Virus record (IMG/VR): IMGVR_UViG_3300015265_000025
Coordinates: 1 to 20,684 of that record
DNA: 20,684 nucleotides
Strand: one strand, 5' to 3'
Origin: a virus
A program made the position numbers and the translations under genes. The notes beneath the pieces are model-generated. The model worked only from the letters and a program-made list of their open reading frames with translations, was not told where the DNA came from and did not search any database. Below are positions 1,101 to 16,091 of this stretch, piece by piece; positions within the stretch are counted from its first letter, which is position 1, and each line of letters begins with the position of its first letter.

Positions 1101-1169
1101 CTGGATTCACGATAGTGTATTCATGATCATTCTAGTGAATGAAATATCTTCTTGCTGCGCAGGAGTTTA

Positions 1170-1967
1170 ATGTTGAATTCAGGTACTCCTGCCCCTGCTG
1201 CAACTCCTCCTGCAACTGCTGTTGCTACCCCCGAGTTTATTGCGAAAGTGAAAGGTTATCATGATGATAACTTTACTGAGGTTAACTCTGCACTTACGAA
1301 TATTGAGAAGCAGTTACGAAAAGCCTTATCGAAGGGTGATGACTCGGGCGAGCTTACATTCACCCGTCTTTATACTATGTTACTTGGAGTTTGGTGCGAA
1401 GCTAGACTTCATAAGCTTTTGTACGAAAAAGGGGTCTTCTCGGAAACAGAGAGGCAATTTGTATATGCAGTTACGCAGCTTAGCGAGCGCTGGCAGCGCG
1501 CATTAGAATTGGGCCTAAAGAAACATTTAGGGTTGCCGATGGATGAAGAGATCTCGAGGCGTACCGTAAAATTTTCGAAGCTTAATATTTATGAGGAAAT
1601 TCGAGAGTGGATTTCTGAACATTTCAGCCCGGCAATTACATTGCGGAATAAAATTGCGCACGGGCAGTGGGCTATGCCATTTCCTAACACTCAAGGTGAT
1701 TGGCTGAGTAGCAATAATTTCAGTATTTGCGGGTTGTCAAAAGCTGCCTTGAGTGCTGAGAATTTACTCACAACGTCAATAAAAATAGATCTTATCAAAG
1801 AAATTTCGGTGACTATCAATAATTTGGCAGTGGATAGTCTTATCTATAAAGTTGAAAACTTTGATGAGCGATATGCCGAGGTGTCGTCGATTATCGAAAA
1901 GTTGCCATTGGTTGATTATCGCGCTTTCAAACAAGGAATTAGGGGTACATTTAAAACCCCCGCTTGA
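1170..1967 (+). CDS. HEPN-domain protein, putative RNase (prophage cargo)
   Basis: A 265-residue protein. The ATG at 1170 is chosen because AGGAG (1161-1165) precedes it; an upstream in-frame TTG at 1152 has no such site. Residues 1-22 are a low-complexity Pro/Ala/Thr leader. The rest looks helical and carries RNKIAH at residues 159-164. This is the R-N-x3-H (RX4H) motif of HEPN domains, where Arg and His form the RNA-cleaving site of many toxin and abortive-infection RNases. The segment at about 65-90 (TRLYTMLLGVWCEARLHKLL) resembles an early HEPN helix. Local G+C is near 35% in the line counted (1261-1320), far below the neighbouring phage genes, so the gene was probably acquired separately. 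It points towards the methyltransferase gene (convergent). RNase activity is inferred from the motif only. Confidence 0.7.
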   Translation: MLNSGTPAPAATPPATAVATPEFIAKVKGYHDDNFTEVNSALTNIEKQLRKALSKGDDSGELTFTRLYTMLLGVWCEARLHKLLYEKGVFSETERQFVYAVTQLSERWQRALELGLKKHLGLPMDEEISRRTVKFSKLNIYEEIREWISEHFSPAITLRNKIAHGQWAMPFPNTQGDWLSSNNFSICGLSKAALSAENLLTTSIKIDLIKEISVTINNLAVDSLIYKVENFDERYAEVSSIIEKLPLVDYRAFKQGIRGTFKTPA

Positions 1968-2170: not shown

Positions 2171-3022
2171 TCATTCCGTCCGAATCAACCCCCGCCCAAC
2201 CCACTCCGCGACCTGCGTAACAACGGCGTTTCCGGCACCAAAAGCCTCTGCAAGGTTGGCCGCATCCAGTCCGAGGCAAAGCCCATCATCCTCAGCCGCT
2301 CGCTGCCGCTCAGCCATCTGATCCCATCCGTTCGGGTGAGCGACGAGAGTGGTACAGCCCATAGCGATTTGGGAAGGGGCTTTGTCTGCCAATAGAGTAT
2401 TGGCAGCCCAGGCATCCGCGGGGCGTGGCCACTGGATCGATTGAGACGCTGGAGGTATTGCGTCCACTGGCGCGGCGTCAGCCAGCAGCTCGATGGGGGG
2501 CATTCGTCGATAACCTGCGACCAGGAATACTCGGCGACGTTGCTGGGGGACTCCGAAATATTGAGCATTAAGCACTCGCCAAAATCCCACATACCCGCAG
2601 TCCGCAAGGGCCCTGATGACTGTTTCAAAGTCTTGGCTATCGTTGATAGCGAGCAAGTTAACGACGTTCTCAAGGACCACCCAGCGAGGTTGAATTTCTT
2701 TGAGGATTCGTATGACTTCCCAAAACAGGCCGCTGCGTTCGCCGCGTAGTCCGCGGGTGGCTTGGTTGCTGGGTCTGGCACCGGCAATGCTGATGTCTTG
2801 GCAGGGGAACCCGGCGGTGAGGACATCGACGGGGGAGAGGTTATGGGCGCCGCACTGGCGCACGTCTTCAAATTGGCGTGCATGGGGAAATCGATCGGCA
2901 AGCACAGCCCGGTTGACCGGGTTGAGTTCAACTTGCCAGGCGCTGCGGTAACCGGCGTTTTCAAATCCGACATCAAAGCCTCCTATGCCTGCGAACAGGC
3001 TGCCAATGGTGGGTTGCTGCAT
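2171..3022 (-). CDS. DNA cytosine-5 methyltransferase
   Basis: A 283-residue C5 methyltransferase that would transfer a methyl group from S-adenosylmethionine to cytosine in a specific DNA site. Motif I is GSLFAGIGGF (7-16), the catalytic PCQ of motif IV is at 73-75 with Cys74 as nucleophile, ENV of motif VI is at 118-120, QRRRVFLVA of motif VIII starts at 161, and GNAVV of motif X starts at 264. The segment between VIII and X is short for a target-recognition region, and motif IX is not visible in this frame; a good match lies one frame over (see findings). The start overlaps the end of com by 40 bases, as mom overlaps com in phage Mu. No partner endonuclease gene is present, so this is likely a solitary phage enzyme, perhaps protecting phage DNA from host restriction. 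Confidence 0.88.
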   Translation of the reverse strand: MQQPTIGSLFAGIGGFDVGFENAGYRSAWQVELNPVNRAVLADRFPHARQFEDVRQCGAHNLSPVDVLTAGFPCQDISIAGARPSNQATRGLRGERSGLFWEVIRILKEIQPRWVVLENVVNLLAINDSQDFETVIRALADCGYVGFWRVLNAQYFGVPQQRRRVFLVAGYRRMPPIELLADAAPVDAIPPASQSIQWPRPADAWAANTLLADKAPSQIAMGCTTLVAHPNGWDQMAERQRAAEDDGLCLGLDAANLAEAFGAGNAVVTQVAEWVGRGLIRTE

Positions 3023-3225: not shown

Positions 3226-4494
3226 TTATGTTTTCTCTGCCTTCATTCGTTTCCACTCTCGATCCGTCGCCCGCTTCGCCGCTTTCTCAGTGGCGTACAA
3301 CCATCGCAACCGCTTCGGCTTGCTCTGATCCCCAATCGTCACAGTCTTCTCTTTCCCGGATTTCTTGTCGCGGTAATGGGCAACGATGCCGGTGAAGTCA
3401 CCCTTGTTCTCTTCAGCCAGATCCTCGACGGTGTCTTCCGGCAGCTTGCTCTCCAGCTCCAGGCTGACGGTGTAGCCGCTGTCCGCGCGGAGGGTGTGCT
3501 GCACGTTTCCGCCGTACCAGATGATTGCGTCGATCTCGTCCTTCACACCCTGGAGCGTGTAAGTCAGTTCGGGAATCAGGTCTGGTCGCCCCAGTGCCAG
3601 CGTGTAACTGAGGGTGGCGCTGCCGCGTTGCAGACGATTGAACTCGGCCCGGGCAGCACGCAAGGCTGATTGCCGATCGCTGTAGGTGTGGCGCAAGTCC
3701 TTGAGATTTTCGCCGCCGCCGGCAATGGCTTCCTGTTTCTTGGCGCTGTTCACGTCATAGAAGTAGGCACGCGCGCCGTCATAGCTGTCGCGGTCAGCTT
3801 GCAGGTAGCGGTGTTGGTCACCGTCGGCGCGGGTGAGGGTGATATGCGGCAGTTCGGCGCCGCTGGCGGTCTTGCCGCCGCCCGCTGGCAGGCAGAGCAG
3901 GCAGCCGGCCTTGATGGTAACCACCGCATCGAATTCTTCACCGATGCGGCAGATCAGGTTGGCGTCGGACTCGTTAGCCTGGTCGAGCTGCAGGATGTCC
4001 AAACCATCAAGAGTGCCGGCAATGGTCACGGTCAGGCCGTGGCTCAGGGCGATGCCGCCCAGTACGTCGCCGAGGGTGGTGTTGCTCCAGCTGCGTTCGC
4101 GTTTGGTCTTCAGGCCTTTGCGCAGGTCAGCCGATCGGGCGCGGATGCTCAGCACGTCGGGCGCGCCGCTGTGTTCGGTTTCATCGACGGTGTAGGTGCC
4201 CTTGTCCACCAGGCCGGTATCGCTCCAGCCGAGCCAGAGCCGAATGACCGCGCCTGTGGGTGGGATGGCCAGCAGGCCGTCGTGGTCGCTGAGGGTAAGG
4301 CTCAACTGATCGGCCTCGATGCCGCGGTTGTCGGTCAGCTCCAGGCTCATCAGCCGCGGGCTGATCAGTTTGGCGATGTCGTTGCCATCCACCGTGATGC
4401 GGAACGCCGGCACCGGGTAGCCGGCTTCGCGGCGGTAGCGTTCGACGGCGTCATCCAGAAAGCCGGTGACGCGGGAAAGGGCCATATCGATCAC
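3226..4494 (-). CDS. D: P2 gpD-like baseplate hub / late control protein D
   Basis: A 422-residue homologue of P2 gpD (about 387 aa), the hub protein at the base of the contractile tail, structurally like T4 gp27. The family pattern is visible: PAFRITVDGNDI near residue 28, ISPRLMSLELTDNRGIEADQ, then WSDTGLVDKGTYTVDETEHSG, and RIGEEFDAVVTIKAGCL in the middle. The C-terminal 60 residues are highly basic (KPKRLRWLYATEKAAKRATDREWKRMKAEK). The start is GTG at 4494, overlapping the U stop as GTGA, with GAGG eight bases upstream; an internal ATG at 4485 lacks a usable site. It is the last structural gene of the tail operon, as in P2, where it precedes ogr. Here com and a methyltransferase gene follow instead. 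Confidence 0.95.
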   Translation of the reverse strand: MIDMALSRVTGFLDDAVERYRREAGYPVPAFRITVDGNDIAKLISPRLMSLELTDNRGIEADQLSLTLSDHDGLLAIPPTGAVIRLWLGWSDTGLVDKGTYTVDETEHSGAPDVLSIRARSADLRKGLKTKRERSWSNTTLGDVLGGIALSHGLTVTIAGTLDGLDILQLDQANESDANLICRIGEEFDAVVTIKAGCLLCLPAGGGKTASGAELPHITLTRADGDQHRYLQADRDSYDGARAYFYDVNSAKKQEAIAGGGENLKDLRHTYSDRQSALRAARAEFNRLQRGSATLSYTLALGRPDLIPELTYTLQGVKDEIDAIIWYGGNVQHTLRADSGYTVSLELESKLPEDTVEDLAEENKGDFTGIVAHYRDKKSGKEKTVTIGDQSKPKRLRWLYATEKAAKRATDREWKRMKAEKT

Positions 4495-9728: not shown

Positions 9729-9747
9729 TGTATCGGGCAGGCTAACA
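9729..9747 (-). promoter_or_regulatory. Candidate late-activator binding dyad upstream of FI (PF position)
   Basis: TGT (9729-9731) and ACA (9745-9747) are separated by 13 bases, so the site reads TGT-N13-ACA on both strands. P2 late promoters carry TGT-N12-ACA centred near -55, bound by Ogr. This site is about 74 bases before the FI start codon, in the only sizeable gap between the fibre genes and FI, exactly where P2 has PF. A matching site precedes V. I could not assign a confident -10 element. Confidence 0.4.
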
Positions 9748-13223: not shown

Positions 13224-13564
13224 ACGCTGCCCCCCAAACGCAGAGGAACACTGAGACTCAGCGGCTCGTTGGTATCGACGATGCTGCCCTCAAGATCCAG
13301 CGTTGATTGACCTGCCAACGTGGCACCGAGTAATTGCACGCGACTGAGGCTGATGCGTGGTTCCCAGCGCATTAGCGCCATGACGGTGGCGGCGTAGGCT
13401 TGCAAGCGGATGAAGTCGTTGAACGGCTGGTCCACGAGTTCGGGTAGCAAGCTGCCGTACTCGCGGCGCATGACGCGGGTGCCGAGGCGGGTGGTCAGAA
13501 TGTCGGTGACGGACTGGGTGATGTGTTCGACCTGGTCGAGGGCGGCTCCGGTTTCTCGGTTCAT
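13220..13564 (-). CDS. W: Baseplate wedge protein gpW (gp25-like)
   Basis: A 114-residue homologue of P2 gpW (115 aa) and T4 gp25, with a lysozyme-like GPW_gp25 fold. The conserved motif region is ITQSVTDILTTRLGTRVMRR, then EYGSLLPELVDQPFND and RWEPRISLSRVQL. The ATG at 13564 overlaps the V stop (ATGA), which sets the start; the same frame remains open upstream without meaning. In related phages it is needed for baseplate wedge formation and initiates sheath assembly. Confidence 0.96.
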   Translation of the reverse strand: MNRETGAALDQVEHITQSVTDILTTRLGTRVMRREYGSLLPELVDQPFNDFIRLQAYAATVMALMRWEPRISLSRVQLLGATLAGQSTLDLEGSIVDTNEPLSLSVPLRLGGSV

Positions 13565-14133
13565 TGCGGCTGGCCTGTGATGCCGCCACCAGACATGACG
13601 CCGCCGTGAGGGTGTTTGACCAGGCTGATGTTGGCTGCGACCACATCCACCGATACGGTGACTTTGCCGGTGATGGTTTGGTTGCCGGTTTGGGTGTAGT
13701 CGCCCTCGTGGGTAATTGGGCCGACGATACGGATGCCGCCCGTGCTGGTCAGGTTGGTGGTGCCGCCCTCGGGCAGAGTGGCGTTCAGATGGTGCGCGAT
13801 GCTGTCGTACTCGATGACGGTCCCGTCGCGGTAGGTACAACGGTGCAGACCTTCGCGGTCGCCGTTGGCCGGGTGGTGGTCGCTGAACAGACCGGTGAGG
13901 ACAATGCCATTGCCGAGCTGACCGGAGGGACTGAACAAGATGACCTGCTCTTCGAGAGCGGGAGGATTCCACTCGCAGTCGGCACCTGCTCGCGGGGCGA
14001 TCCATGGCAGCCAGCCGGTGGTCAGCGCGCCGGTTTTCACTCGCACGCGTGGGGGCTTCATCTGGGTTTCGGTGATGGTGCCGAGGCGGATGAGGTTTTC
14101 AATCAGGCGGGCGAGGGTGGCTAAGTCGTTCAT
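13561..14133 (-). CDS. V: Baseplate spike protein gpV
   Basis: A 190-residue P2 gpV homologue (211 aa), the membrane-piercing spike. The N-terminal OB-like domain (residues about 15-95) contains RVRVKTGALTTGWLPWIAPRAG and EEQVILFSPSGQLGNGIVLTG. The C-terminal part (about 110-190) is a repetitive beta-helix with alternating Thr, Ile and Val (GDYTQTGNQTITGKVTVSVDV). It ends with HPHGGV, a His-rich apex segment that could bind iron as in P2 V. The start is the first ATG, with a weak ribosome binding site. It is the first gene after the plus-strand moron and should be transcribed from its own late promoter. Confidence 0.95.
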   Translation of the reverse strand: MNDLATLARLIENLIRLGTITETQMKPPRVRVKTGALTTGWLPWIAPRAGADCEWNPPALEEQVILFSPSGQLGNGIVLTGLFSDHHPANGDREGLHRCTYRDGTVIEYDSIAHHLNATLPEGGTTNLTSTGGIRIVGPITHEGDYTQTGNQTITGKVTVSVDVVAANISLVKHPHGGVMSGGGITGQPQ

Positions 14134-14180: not shown

Positions 14181-14199
14181 TGTAGTATCGCCAGTTACA
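14181..14199 (-). promoter_or_regulatory. Candidate late-activator binding dyad upstream of V (PV position)
   Basis: TGT (14181-14183) and ACA (14197-14199) are 13 bases apart; the arms extend to TGTA/TTACA. The site has the same TGT-N13-ACA geometry as that upstream of FI, and lies in the divergent gap between V and the moron gene, where P2 places PV. Its centre is 57 bases from the V start codon, which leaves little or no leader if the activator sits near -55. It could instead regulate the moron. Confidence 0.38.
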
Positions 14200-14310
14200 T
14201 GAAAAACAAATCGGTGCGAAACCCTTAAAGTTATTGATAGTATTTTTACATCGCTAGATTCGTGCTTGGTTTTTGCTTGCAGCATTCATTTCAGTTGCCT
14301 TGGAGGCATC

Positions 14311-15153
14311 GTGGTCATCAAATTTGAAAATAGATTGATTGCTTTCTTGGATGTGCTTGGGTTTTCTGCTCGCTTAGAAACTGATGATATTGAAGAATTA
14401 CATCACAAGTATTCATCTTTCATCGACGAAGCCAAGGTAAAAACGTTCTATGAGGCGCAAGGCGATGGGGAAGGAAGAAAAAACTTTGATTTTTCGCAGT
14501 TTTTGTTTGATTCAATTGTTTTGGTGTCCTGCCCGATAGACGATGTTTATAACGTTAATAATTTTGTGGCCGCCGTTTCTTTTCTGCTTGAACTGGGGTT
14601 TAAAAACAAACTGCCATTGCGAGGAGCTATCAGTCGAGGTGATTTTTTATTCGATCCAGAAAGAAATATTTTTCTCAGTGAGCGTTTTCCGGAGCTAGCA
14701 AAATTCGAGCTGAAACAGGAGTGGGCAGGTTGCTCTGTCCTCCACCATGCTGAAGAAATTATACTTAGTTCATCAATGGGGGAAGGTGAAAAACTATTGG
14801 GAGATCAGAGAAGAGACCAGCCTTTTCATCGGTACACTGTACCTCTGAAGGACGGAGAAGAATTGAATTGCCTCGTATTGAATTATCTTTTTTTTCTAAC
14901 GGAGGCTGAGATAAATGAAGGTATTGATTTTTTGATTTCTGGAAAAAAAGAGGAGAATGTTAAGTATTTTGAGTTTCTTAAAAATCTTCCGCTACCACTC
15001 CAAGTATTGCAGCCTCAATTTTTTCCAGCAAAGTATGCGGCAATTATGACGACTCGAAGTGGGTTTCGTATTAAGTTCGCTGATGAGAATTTCAAGTCGT
15101 GTACGCCAGGACCAGGCAGCTTTCAATTCACAGCGGTGGGTCGGTGGAAATAG
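14311..15153 (+). CDS. Moron: putative class III nucleotidyl-cyclase-fold protein
   Basis: A 280-residue protein on the opposite strand from the surrounding late genes. The GTG at 14311 has GGAGG (14302-14306) upstream; an earlier TTG at 14266 does not. IAFLDVLGF (10-18) and FLFDSIVLV (64-72) resemble the two metal-binding strands of class III nucleotidyl cyclases, with Asp14 and Asp67 as metal ligands. LRGAISRGD (103-111) fits the following conserved strand. A later segment (EWAGCSVLHHAEEII) resembles the region after it in the widespread FIDILGF-type proteins of unknown role. G+C is about 38% in 14341-14400, well below the flanks, so it is an acquired moron. It lies between S and V, the slot of P2 orf30. 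A cyclic nucleotide signalling or anti-phage role is plausible; no effector gene is next to it. Confidence 0.62.
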   Translation: MVIKFENRLIAFLDVLGFSARLETDDIEELHHKYSSFIDEAKVKTFYEAQGDGEGRKNFDFSQFLFDSIVLVSCPIDDVYNVNNFVAAVSFLLELGFKNKLPLRGAISRGDFLFDPERNIFLSERFPELAKFELKQEWAGCSVLHHAEEIILSSSMGEGEKLLGDQRRDQPFHRYTVPLKDGEELNCLVLNYLFFLTEAEINEGIDFLISGKKEENVKYFEFLKNLPLPLQVLQPQFFPAKYAAIMTTRSGFRIKFADENFKSCTPGPGSFQFTAVGRWK

Positions 15154-15168
15154 GTGGCTATCACGTAG

Positions 15169-15618
15169 TCAAATGCAAAGCAGATGGTCTCGGATTAAAG
15201 CTATATCGATATCGGTGAAACCAAGTATTTCCCTTTGGTCGTATTGCACATCTGGTGCACCTCGTTCGGCGCGATTCTTCAACCCGTACTGATGCACCTT
15301 GGCTATTCGAGCGATTCGGCCAGTGAATCCTAAGCTGATGGTGTTACCGTCGCCTTTGACCTTTAAAAATCTTGCGGTCCGAATTTTCCGGAACATTTGG
15401 GCTTTCCGCTTCACCCGTTCCTGCTTACCGCGCAGGTTGCGCTGCTTGCGAGGTGCGAACTTGCTGCCGCCAGGGTTGTGTTGGGCCATGATTCGTTGCT
15501 GCTGGCTTTTCCGCAAAGCTTGGCCAAGGCTTCGGACCAGTCTGTTGCGGGCTGTCGGCTCAAGTTGCCCGAGCAGACCGGCCGCCCAGTCCTCCAGCGC
15601 ATCCAGTTGGTTGGTCAT
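15169..15618 (-). CDS. S: Tail completion protein gpS
   Basis: A 149-residue P2 gpS homologue (150 aa), the virion morphogenesis or tail-completion family. It starts MTNQLDALEDWAAGLLGQL at the ATG at 15618, overlapping the R stop (ATGA). The basic middle (QQRIMAQHNPGGSKFAPRK, then KRKAQMFRKIRTARFLKVK) and IARIAKVHQYGLKNRAERG are typical. The final residues (LIRDHLLCI) end close to the moron stop, 15 bases away, and may have been altered when that gene was inserted. It acts in joining tails to heads. Confidence 0.93.
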   Translation of the reverse strand: MTNQLDALEDWAAGLLGQLEPTARNRLVRSLGQALRKSQQQRIMAQHNPGGSKFAPRKQRNLRGKQERVKRKAQMFRKIRTARFLKVKGDGNTISLGFTGRIARIAKVHQYGLKNRAERGAPDVQYDQREILGFTDIDIALIRDHLLCI

Positions 15619-16091
15619 TGCGGAACGGCCCATTCAATGCCAGTGCTCTGGGCGCCGGGTATCCAGTTCATGTCTAGGAATGCGGCGACTCGCTGCGGTT
15701 CACCAGGATGACGGATGGTGATGTTGCCTTCTTCGTCCTTGCCCACCACCACACGTTCGGTCAGCGGCAGCGTCAAACTCATATCCACTTTGCTGTTATC
15801 CAGAACGTCTGCCTCGAACTGGATGCCGTCGGCGGATTTGTTCAGGTTCTCCAGCAACTCAGACTGATGCACGCTCAACCAACCGAGAAGCGGCAGCATG
15901 ACGCTGTCGGGATGGCCGGCAAAGTCGGTGAGGATGATCTGCAGGTCGAAACTGTATTCGAACGACAGGCTCGCCGCAGCGGTGCAGCGAACCTTGCCGT
16001 TGTCGATGAAGATCAGCAACCGGTCAGGGTTGTGCTTGAGTTCGGCAATGGTGGCCAGCAGATGTGTGCGCAAGCTATCGGGTTTATTCAT
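15615..16091 (-). CDS. R: Tail completion protein gpR
   Basis: A 158-residue member of the P2 phage tail completion R family (P2 R about 155 aa). Markers are MNKPDSLRTHLLATIAELKHNPDRLLIFIDNG at the N-terminus, SFEYSFDLQIILTDFAGHPD, and near the end RHPGEPQRVAAFLDMNWIPG. It is needed to finish tails. It follows the endolysin gene after 45 bases and overlaps S by four bases. In P2 the spanin genes lysB/lysC lie immediately before R; here that slot is empty. Confidence 0.94.
   Translation of the reverse strand: MNKPDSLRTHLLATIAELKHNPDRLLIFIDNGKVRCTAAASLSFEYSFDLQIILTDFAGHPDSVMLPLLGWLSVHQSELLENLNKSADGIQFEADVLDNSKVDMSLTLPLTERVVVGKDEEGNITIRHPGEPQRVAAFLDMNWIPGAQSTGIEWAVPQ

What the first reader, a model, noticed from the sequence alone, without database searches (positions are those of the whole stretch)
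14311..15153. Cyclase-fold moron in the S-V slot of a P2-like prophage
A plus-strand, AT-rich gene interrupts the minus-strand late operon exactly where P2 carries orf30. The protein has two spaced aspartates in cyclase-like strands (FLDVLGF, FDSIV) and LRGAISRGD, a pattern fitting the class III nucleotidyl cyclase fold. Such enzymes make signals in Pycsar-type defence, but this gene has no adjacent effector. It could be a standalone signalling enzyme, a non-catalytic relative, or act through a host effector. The divergent layout suggests expression from the lysogen.
Basis: partly seen in the sequence, partly recalled or inferred. Interest (0 to 1): 0.7.

Follow-up and report, generated by a model that had tools for sequence, protein, structure and literature searches.

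The report
Cyclase-fold gene in prophage cargo slot
A prophage of a probable Pseudomonas host carries a stand-alone gene for a protein folded like the enzymes that make cyclic nucleotide signals, in a spot where related phages swap in many different genes, some of defence type, so it is probably a single-gene anti-phage or lysogen-protecting factor of an unnamed family.

Summary
The gene is real: 280 codons from a GTG start, conserved at 71-81% protein identity at the same place in two other P2-like phage contigs, between tail gene S and baseplate gene V, where P2 has orf30. Asp67 and Arg104 are nearly invariant among relatives, Asp14 in the fair subset. The canonical transition-state Asn and Arg are Pro127 and Lys131, and none of 45 relatives scanned matches a Pycsar-cyclase model: cyclase-fold, but not shown to be a cyclase and not Pycsar by these tests.

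Two facts point to defence cargo. The S-V slot is a hotspot: 71 of 74 related phage contigs carry AT-rich cargo there, of many types (FRG and AbiV proteins among them). Close orthologues are integron cassettes in two Pseudomonas genomes and cargo beside portal Q in another P2-like phage. Distant relatives adjoin known defence genes more often than control genes do (P 0.013). Enzyme activity and protection are untested.

The parts
14311..15153 (+). Cyclase-fold moron, 280 aa, GTG start
   Evidence: model mc82fa046cc9f; fold searches
14302..14306 (+). Shine-Dalgarno-like GGAGG, 4 nt before the GTG
   Evidence: read from sequence; similar GGAGG in L001
14134..15168 (.). S-V cargo slot (1035 bp), hypervariable among related phage contigs
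14181..14199 (.). TGT-N13-ACA palindrome, probable Ogr-type activator site of the V-operon late promoter, at the V-side edge of the slot
   Evidence: 65-67 nt before V in 72 of 75 slots; P2 late-promoter consensus TGT-N12-ACA from PMC3931495 passages
13561..14133 (-). Baseplate assembly protein V (flank)
   Evidence: phrog_9992 E 5e-30
15169..15633 (-). Tail completion protein S (flank)
   Evidence: phrog_26 E 5e-36; gpR next to it, PF06891

Best explanation
A horizontally exchanged, single-gene anti-phage (superinfection-excluding) factor built on a class III nucleotidyl-cyclase domain. Shown here: the predicted fold; conserved metal-site Asp14/Asp67 and Arg104; loss of the canonical transition-state Asn/Arg; location in a cargo hotspot; occurrence of orthologues as integron cassettes. 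Inferred: it is a metal-dependent enzyme acting on a nucleotide (a non-canonical signal or an altered nucleotide), switched on by infection by another phage, and it limits that phage either alone or through a host protein that senses the product. It serves the lysogen rather than the phage's own late programme.
For: Fold: pLDDT 90.9, pTM 0.90; 44 of 44 PDB matches at E <= 0.001 are adenylyl or guanylyl cyclases; Z 14.2; profile-profile comparison with 20 bacterial class III domains (four of them identical or nearly so) gives P 8.8e-7, probability 83.9%, with both Asp columns aligned. Active-site constraint. Cargo status: 71 of 74 related phage contigs carry AT-rich cargo in the slot, 3 are empty; about 26 content clusters, including FRG proteins (5 inside the slot) and an AbiV protein. 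Mobility: orthologues flanked by attC-like repeats in L018 and L019; beside portal Q in another P2-like phage. Defence neighbourhood of distant relatives: at least 12 of 113 immediate neighbours match PADLOC models at E <= 1e-20 against 3 of 116 control genes, Fisher one-sided P 0.013. Purifying selection.
Against: No activity or protection was measured. Canonical Asn, Arg and base-specifying residues are absent, so enzyme activity is uncertain. There is no effector beside it, and no cNMP-binding domain in any of 4 phage records, which may be fragments. The defence neighbours belong to distant relatives (about 15-41% identity); the moron's own orthologues were not in that study. 10 of the 113 neighbours were picked by eye and scanned one by one, the other 103 together; loci were not corrected for relatedness. 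Slot cargo can also be non-defensive, and most cargo types were not tested against any family library. A profile search of PDB sequences gave nothing significant (best E 0.14 to unrelated proteins; an adenylate cyclase at E 1.7).
Confidence: 0.5

Rival explanations
1. A Pycsar-like pyrimidine or purine cyclase: it makes a cyclic mononucleotide that opens or activates an effector encoded elsewhere in the host.
For: Same fold as PycC (7r65_A at rank 47, E 1.4e-3); both metal Asp kept; PycC base-recognition residues also differ between clades (PMC11224242, passages). Some distant relatives do have a small TM protein directly beside them in the same direction: 10 of 41 close codirectional neighbours have a predicted TM helix, four in L034 and L140.
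Against: 0 of 45 members match any PADLOC PycC model at E <= 1, while an ordinary Pseudomonas class III domain matches 13. Asn/Arg pair replaced. TM neighbours are not enriched overall (27 of 113 against 26 of 116). No cNMP-binding domain in 4 phage records.
Confidence: 0.2
2. A non-catalytic cyclase relative: it uses the fold to bind a nucleotide or to dimerise with another protein, acting as sensor, sponge or toxin-like adaptor.
For: Transition-state Asn in 1 of 45 and Arg in 2 of 45, and in 5 of 20 and 2 of 20. The usual substrate-specifying Lys/Asp positions hold Gln63 and Ile120 (my own mapping on the alignment; the positions are recalled).
Against: Asp67 is kept in 65 of 65 and Arg104 in 61 of 65, with Lys in the other 4; a dead site would not be expected to keep the metal ligands so strictly. 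Lys131 sits at the Arg position in 6 of 7 orthologues and Arg in the seventh.
Confidence: 0.2
3. Phage counter-defence or a phage regulatory gene acting during the phage's own lytic cycle, for example perturbing host cyclic-nucleotide signalling.
For: It is in a phage genome near a late-promoter element.
Against: It is transcribed against the late operon; orthologues are integron cassettes in bacterial genomes and one lies in a Glycocaulis contig between a PLP-enzyme gene and a tRNA-Pro; 48 relatives were found in bacterial and archaeal genome contigs (some may be prophage) against 13 in viral contigs.
Confidence: 0.08
4. A metabolic or stress moron, not defensive.
For: Many relatives sit next to ordinary-looking genes (output partly cut); integron cassettes carry diverse functions.
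Against: Patchy distribution (27 of 298 Pseudomonas genomes), hotspot location, and excess of defence neighbours.
Confidence: 0.15

Closest known systems
Class III adenylyl/guanylyl cyclases (PF00211)
   Same: Predicted fold, both metal-site Asp in the right strands, RGAI..G strand aligned with IRMGLNTG, and a G..L..A..LE helix aligned with GRDVNLASRLE
   Different: No Pfam hit for the window protein; transition-state Asn and Arg replaced by Pro127 and Lys131; base-specifying residues absent; extra C-terminal region 195-280 hardly covered by the matches
Pycsar cyclase PycC
   Same: Class III fold, paired Asp, phage-related context
   Different: No PycC model match in any of 45 members; no PycTM or PycTIR effector adjacent; Asn/Arg lost
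P2 orf30 and old/tin type prophage cargo
   Same: Accessory gene at a fixed site in a P2-like phage; orf30 named as a locus of acquired genes (PMC3091744, passages)
   Different: The E. coli P2 defence hotspot of PMC9122126 (passages) is the cos-proximal A-Q site, not S-V; cyclase fold
Antiphage gene cassettes of integrons (titles seen only in the reference list of PMC13092281)
   Same: Orthologues are cassettes between attC-like repeats next to an integron-type integrase
   Different: I did not see those papers and cannot say whether this cassette is listed there

Membership tests
Class III nucleotidyl cyclase | Class III cyclase fold | tested here: met
   predicted model
Class III nucleotidyl cyclase | Two metal-binding Asp (strand 1 and the strand 2-3 hairpin) | tested here: met
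   Asp14 and Asp67 aligned with the Asp of true cyclases; conserved
Class III nucleotidyl cyclase | Transition-state Asn and Arg | tested here: not met
   Pro127 and Lys131; Asn in 1 of 45, Arg in 2 of 45
Class III nucleotidyl cyclase | Cyclic nucleotide synthesis | not testable with these tools
   needs biochemistry
Pycsar | Match to PycC models | tested here: not met
   0 of 45 at E <= 1; positive control
Pycsar | Adjacent PycTM or PycTIR effector | tested here: not met
   Direct neighbours are S and V; no cNMP-binding domain in 4 phage records
Pycsar | cCMP or cUMP production and abortive infection | not testable with these tools
   needs experiment
Prophage moron / cargo | Own transcription direction, atypical composition, variable presence at one site | tested here: met
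Anti-phage defence gene | Protects against phage | not testable with these tools
   only indirect: hotspot and neighbour data
Integron gene cassette (orthologues L018, L019) | ORF between attC-like repeats near an integron-type integrase | tested here: met
   L018 recombinase PF00589 and PF13495, L019 recombinase 54% identical to it; the IntI and attC assignments use motifs recalled from memory

The most novel reading that the evidence does not exclude
An unrecognised, widespread immune enzyme family: class III cyclase-fold proteins that kept the two-metal site but dropped the cyclase transition-state and base-recognition residues, and so make a new kind of nucleotide signal or modification. 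They work as one-gene systems shuttled between prophage hotspots, integron cassettes and defence islands.
Probability: 0.3. Interest if true: 0.85.

Novelty: new variant of a known kind. Interest (0 to 1): 0.62.

Why it matters
Pfam, PADLOC and NCBIfam do not name this protein, yet profile relatives occur in 27 of 298 sampled Pseudomonas genomes and in several phyla. If it acts in immunity, it adds a cyclase-fold enzyme outside Pycsar whose product is unknown, and it makes the question 'what does a class III fold do without Asn/Arg?' directly testable with a 280-residue protein. The S-V slot of these P2-like phages is also a ready source of candidate defence genes.

Tried and rejected
Pycsar membership: rejected on models, effector and residues. 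I hoped to align true PycC proteins, but a Pseudomonas scan with PDLC00766 found none at E <= 1e-25 in 298 genomes and nothing rang in the controls, so it proves nothing.

Expression from the lysogen by a sigma-70 promoter: no scored site; undecided. The conserved palindrome upstream was first considered as the moron's regulator; rejected because it keeps its distance to V whatever the cargo.

Phage and plasmid record collections: no match at E <= 1e-5 in phages or E <= 0.01 in plasmids; two weak phage hits at E <= 10, of which MT835554.1 carries the family motifs.

Tree of 7 orthologues: too poorly resolved to say which way the gene moved between phage and integron (no starred branch).

Ascertainment: the 48 genome loci were found with the pattern [AL]FLD[VI]LGF[SK], so Asp14 conservation in that set is by construction; the profile-found Pseudomonas set is the fair test. 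Of its 28 matches I examined 20; left out were L018's own genome, already in the 45, and the 7 weakest. Rows dropped elsewhere: the neighbour study listed 60 loci chosen by me, two (L032, L145) gave no recovered homologue, and the orthologue group, near-duplicates and very short contigs were left out beforehand. Only the best 80 of 141 V relatives were fetched; 6 of these 80 had no S and were dropped. The FRG and AbiV searches covered 26 records picked by eye out of 74. At the looser PADLOC limit (1e-6) no fair count is possible: the neighbours gave 306 families of which 25 were shown, the control 16.

The second AT-rich ORF (1152-1967) gave one relative only and was not pursued.

Print: the listings of searches of the open-licence library, and the passages read, showed no description of this family or of S-V as a defence hotspot. 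PMC13182921 (passages) does report defence genes in P2-like prophages of Pseudomonas syringae. Subscription papers and supplements were not searchable.

Full report
OBSERVATION. The window is a 20,684-base virus record; a Pseudomonas host is my inference from where its orthologues live. The ORF at 14311-15153 is real, starts with GTG after a GGAGG, and encodes 280 residues. In the orthologous contigs L001 (81%) and L002 (71%) the GTG is the only start in frame. Synonymous differences are near saturation while pN is 0.11-0.18 among the three. GC drops to 0.40-0.43 against about 0.6 around it. The flanks are tail-completion S (phrog_26) and baseplate V (phrog_9992), both on the minus strand; gpR, holin and a P2-family capsid gene lie further on. 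P2 Orf30 lies between V and S, and that site is named as a locus of acquired genes (PMC3091744, passages).

FOLD. No Pfam, PADLOC or NCBIfam hit and no PDB sequence hit for the protein itself; only phrog_23933, function unknown, E 3e-6. I built a 45-member alignment from the window and loci found by the search for related loci. AlphaFold2 on it gave pLDDT 90.9 and pTM 0.90. Foldseek against the PDB gave 44 matches at E <= 0.001, all adenylyl or guanylyl cyclases. VIA-align gave Z 14.2, 175 residues, rmsd 3.6 to soluble guanylyl cyclase; most matches span residues 1-195. In the viral library only two hits reached E <= 0.001, a giant-virus response regulator and a giant-virus guanylate-cyclase-domain protein. 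PF00211 was the Pfam family that most members hit, but weakly (3 of 45, best E 0.061). A profile search of PDB sequences gave nothing significant: best E 0.14 to unrelated proteins, an adenylate cyclase at 1.7. Profile-profile alignment with 20 bacterial class III domains gave P 8.8e-7, probability 83.9%, over 164 columns.

ACTIVE SITE. The alignment puts Asp14 and Asp67 on the two metal-binding Asp of true cyclases, RGAISRG on the IRMGLNTG strand, and residues 123-133 on the GRDVNLASRLE helix. Asp67 is kept in 45 of 45, Arg104 in 41 of 45 (Lys in 4), Gly105 in 45 of 45. Of 28 Pseudomonas matches found with the family profile I examined 20: Asp14 in 19 of 19 with a letter there (the other is a broken copy), Asp67 in 20 of 20, Arg104 in 20 of 20, Gly105 in 18 of 20. 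The canonical transition-state Asn falls on Pro127 and the Arg on Lys131; Asn occurs in 1 of 45 and Arg in 2 of 45, and in 5 of 20 and 2 of 20. So the metal site is under strict selection while the cyclising residues are not. I infer an active but non-canonical metal-dependent nucleotide enzyme; this is not shown.

NOT PYCSAR BY THE TESTS RUN. None of 45 members matches any PADLOC PycC model at E <= 1, while an ordinary Pseudomonas class III domain matches 13 of them. There is no effector beside the gene and no cNMP-binding domain in 4 phage records, which may be fragments. TM proteins are no commoner next to relatives than in controls (27 of 113 against 26 of 116), though 10 of 41 close codirectional neighbours have a predicted TM helix, four in L034 and L140. 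PycC enzymes themselves share the paired Asp and vary in base-recognition residues (PMC11224242, passages), so a distant functional parallel is not excluded.

THE SLOT. I fetched the best 80 of 141 viral loci with a relative of V. Of the 74 that also hold S upstream, 3 have a 61-bp gap (GC 0.67-0.77) and 71 carry 493-3068 bp of AT-rich cargo (GC 0.39-0.50). Single-linkage grouping by shared ORFs gives 29 content clusters for 75 slots including the window, three of them the empties; near-identical contigs are among them and the grouping is rough. In this set only the window, L001 and L002 hold the cyclase-fold gene. Family searches on 26 of these records, picked by eye, found FRG proteins (7 matches in 6 records; 5 fall inside the slot by coordinate arithmetic) and an AbiV protein inside the slot of L197; the start of the L155 cargo resembles ABC/OLD-type ATPases. 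Other types (DUF4062, DUF2971, KAP, restriction-like) were named by eye only. This hotspot differs from the cos-proximal A-Q hotspot reported for E. coli P2 phages (PMC9122126, passages).

LATE-PROMOTER SITE. A TGT-N13-ACA palindrome at 14181-14199 lies 65-67 nt before V in 72 of 75 slots whatever the cargo, against 21 of 637 control windows inside cargo; the three empty slots, with 61 bp, are too short to hold it. Another copy lies before FI (9729-9747); by count alone such sites are no commoner in the window than chance (3 found, 3.3 expected), so the argument rests on the fixed place. P2 late promoters PV and PF carry TGT-N12-ACA (PMC3931495, passages). I read it as the V-operon late promoter and the inner edge of the cargo slot, not as the moron's regulator.

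WHERE ELSE. Orthologues of 72% and 68% identity lie in two Pseudomonas draft genomes (L018, L019) inside arrays of 9 and 6 repeats of 83-86 nt, near a tyrosine recombinase that I judge integron-type from memory of its motifs. In L018 the cassette holds this gene alone; in L019 an HNH-type ORF (by eye) shares it. A 60% orthologue in another P2-like phage (L007; capsid genes N and O recognised) follows portal Q, which I take to be the cos side from P2 gene order. A 49% orthologue sits in Glycocaulis beside a tRNA-Pro, and a Pseudomonas copy (39%) is broken by a stop. Profile relatives occur in 27 of 298 Pseudomonas genomes.

DEFENCE NEIGHBOURS OF DISTANT RELATIVES. For 58 loci, none of them the close orthologues above, I took the immediate neighbours (113 proteins) and, as control, genes 5-7.5 kb away (116). 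At E <= 1e-20 at least 12 of 113 match PADLOC models: ZorE2, GajB, PifA, type III restriction, DrmMI/IIG, two OLD/AriA/GajA-type ATPases, a PtuA-type ATPase and a methylase (9 of 10 proteins picked by eye), and at least 3, judged by type, among the remaining 103 (25 of 34 families shown). The control has 3 of 116, one a transposase. Fisher one-sided P 0.013; with the 9 alone it would be 0.06. The excess is moderate, not corrected for relatedness, and concerns relatives at about 15-41% identity. The broken 39% copy (L130) is one of the 58.

VERDICT. Fold about 0.97 sure, mobile accessory cargo about 0.95, defence role about 0.7, active enzyme about 0.6, canonical cyclic mononucleotide product about 0.25 (my judgement). 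The whole stated mechanism gets 0.5.

Noticed in passing
window 1152-1967 (+): Second AT-rich plus-strand ORF near the end of the late region; phrog_12663, function unknown (E 3.6e-31); no Pfam hit, no PADLOC hit; one 78% relative in viral contigs.
   Followed up: partly
window 2171-3022 (-): C5 cytosine DNA methylase (PF00145, E 2.9e-50) next to the tail gene at 3226-4494, another likely accessory gene.
   Followed up: partly
L146-L225, interval between S and V: The S-V slot of P2-like phages related to this one is a hypervariable hotspot with about 26 content clusters (FRG, AbiV and, by eye, DUF4062, DUF2971, KAP and restriction-like proteins); a source of candidate defence genes.
   Followed up: partly
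window 9729-9747 and 14181-14199: TGT-N13-ACA sites before FI and V, one base longer than the P2 TGT-N12-ACA consensus; before V it is fixed in 72 of 75 slots.
   Followed up: yes
L018 7011-7910 and L164/L165 slot: A DUF2971 protein is a neighbouring integron cassette (PF11185), and similar-looking proteins (by eye) occupy the S-V slot in other phages, so integrons and this phage slot may draw on one gene pool.
   Followed up: no
L058 8827-9627 and L139 7116-7916: A 267-aa protein of unknown function, similar by eye, is directly downstream of two distant relatives, a possible partner gene.
   Followed up: no
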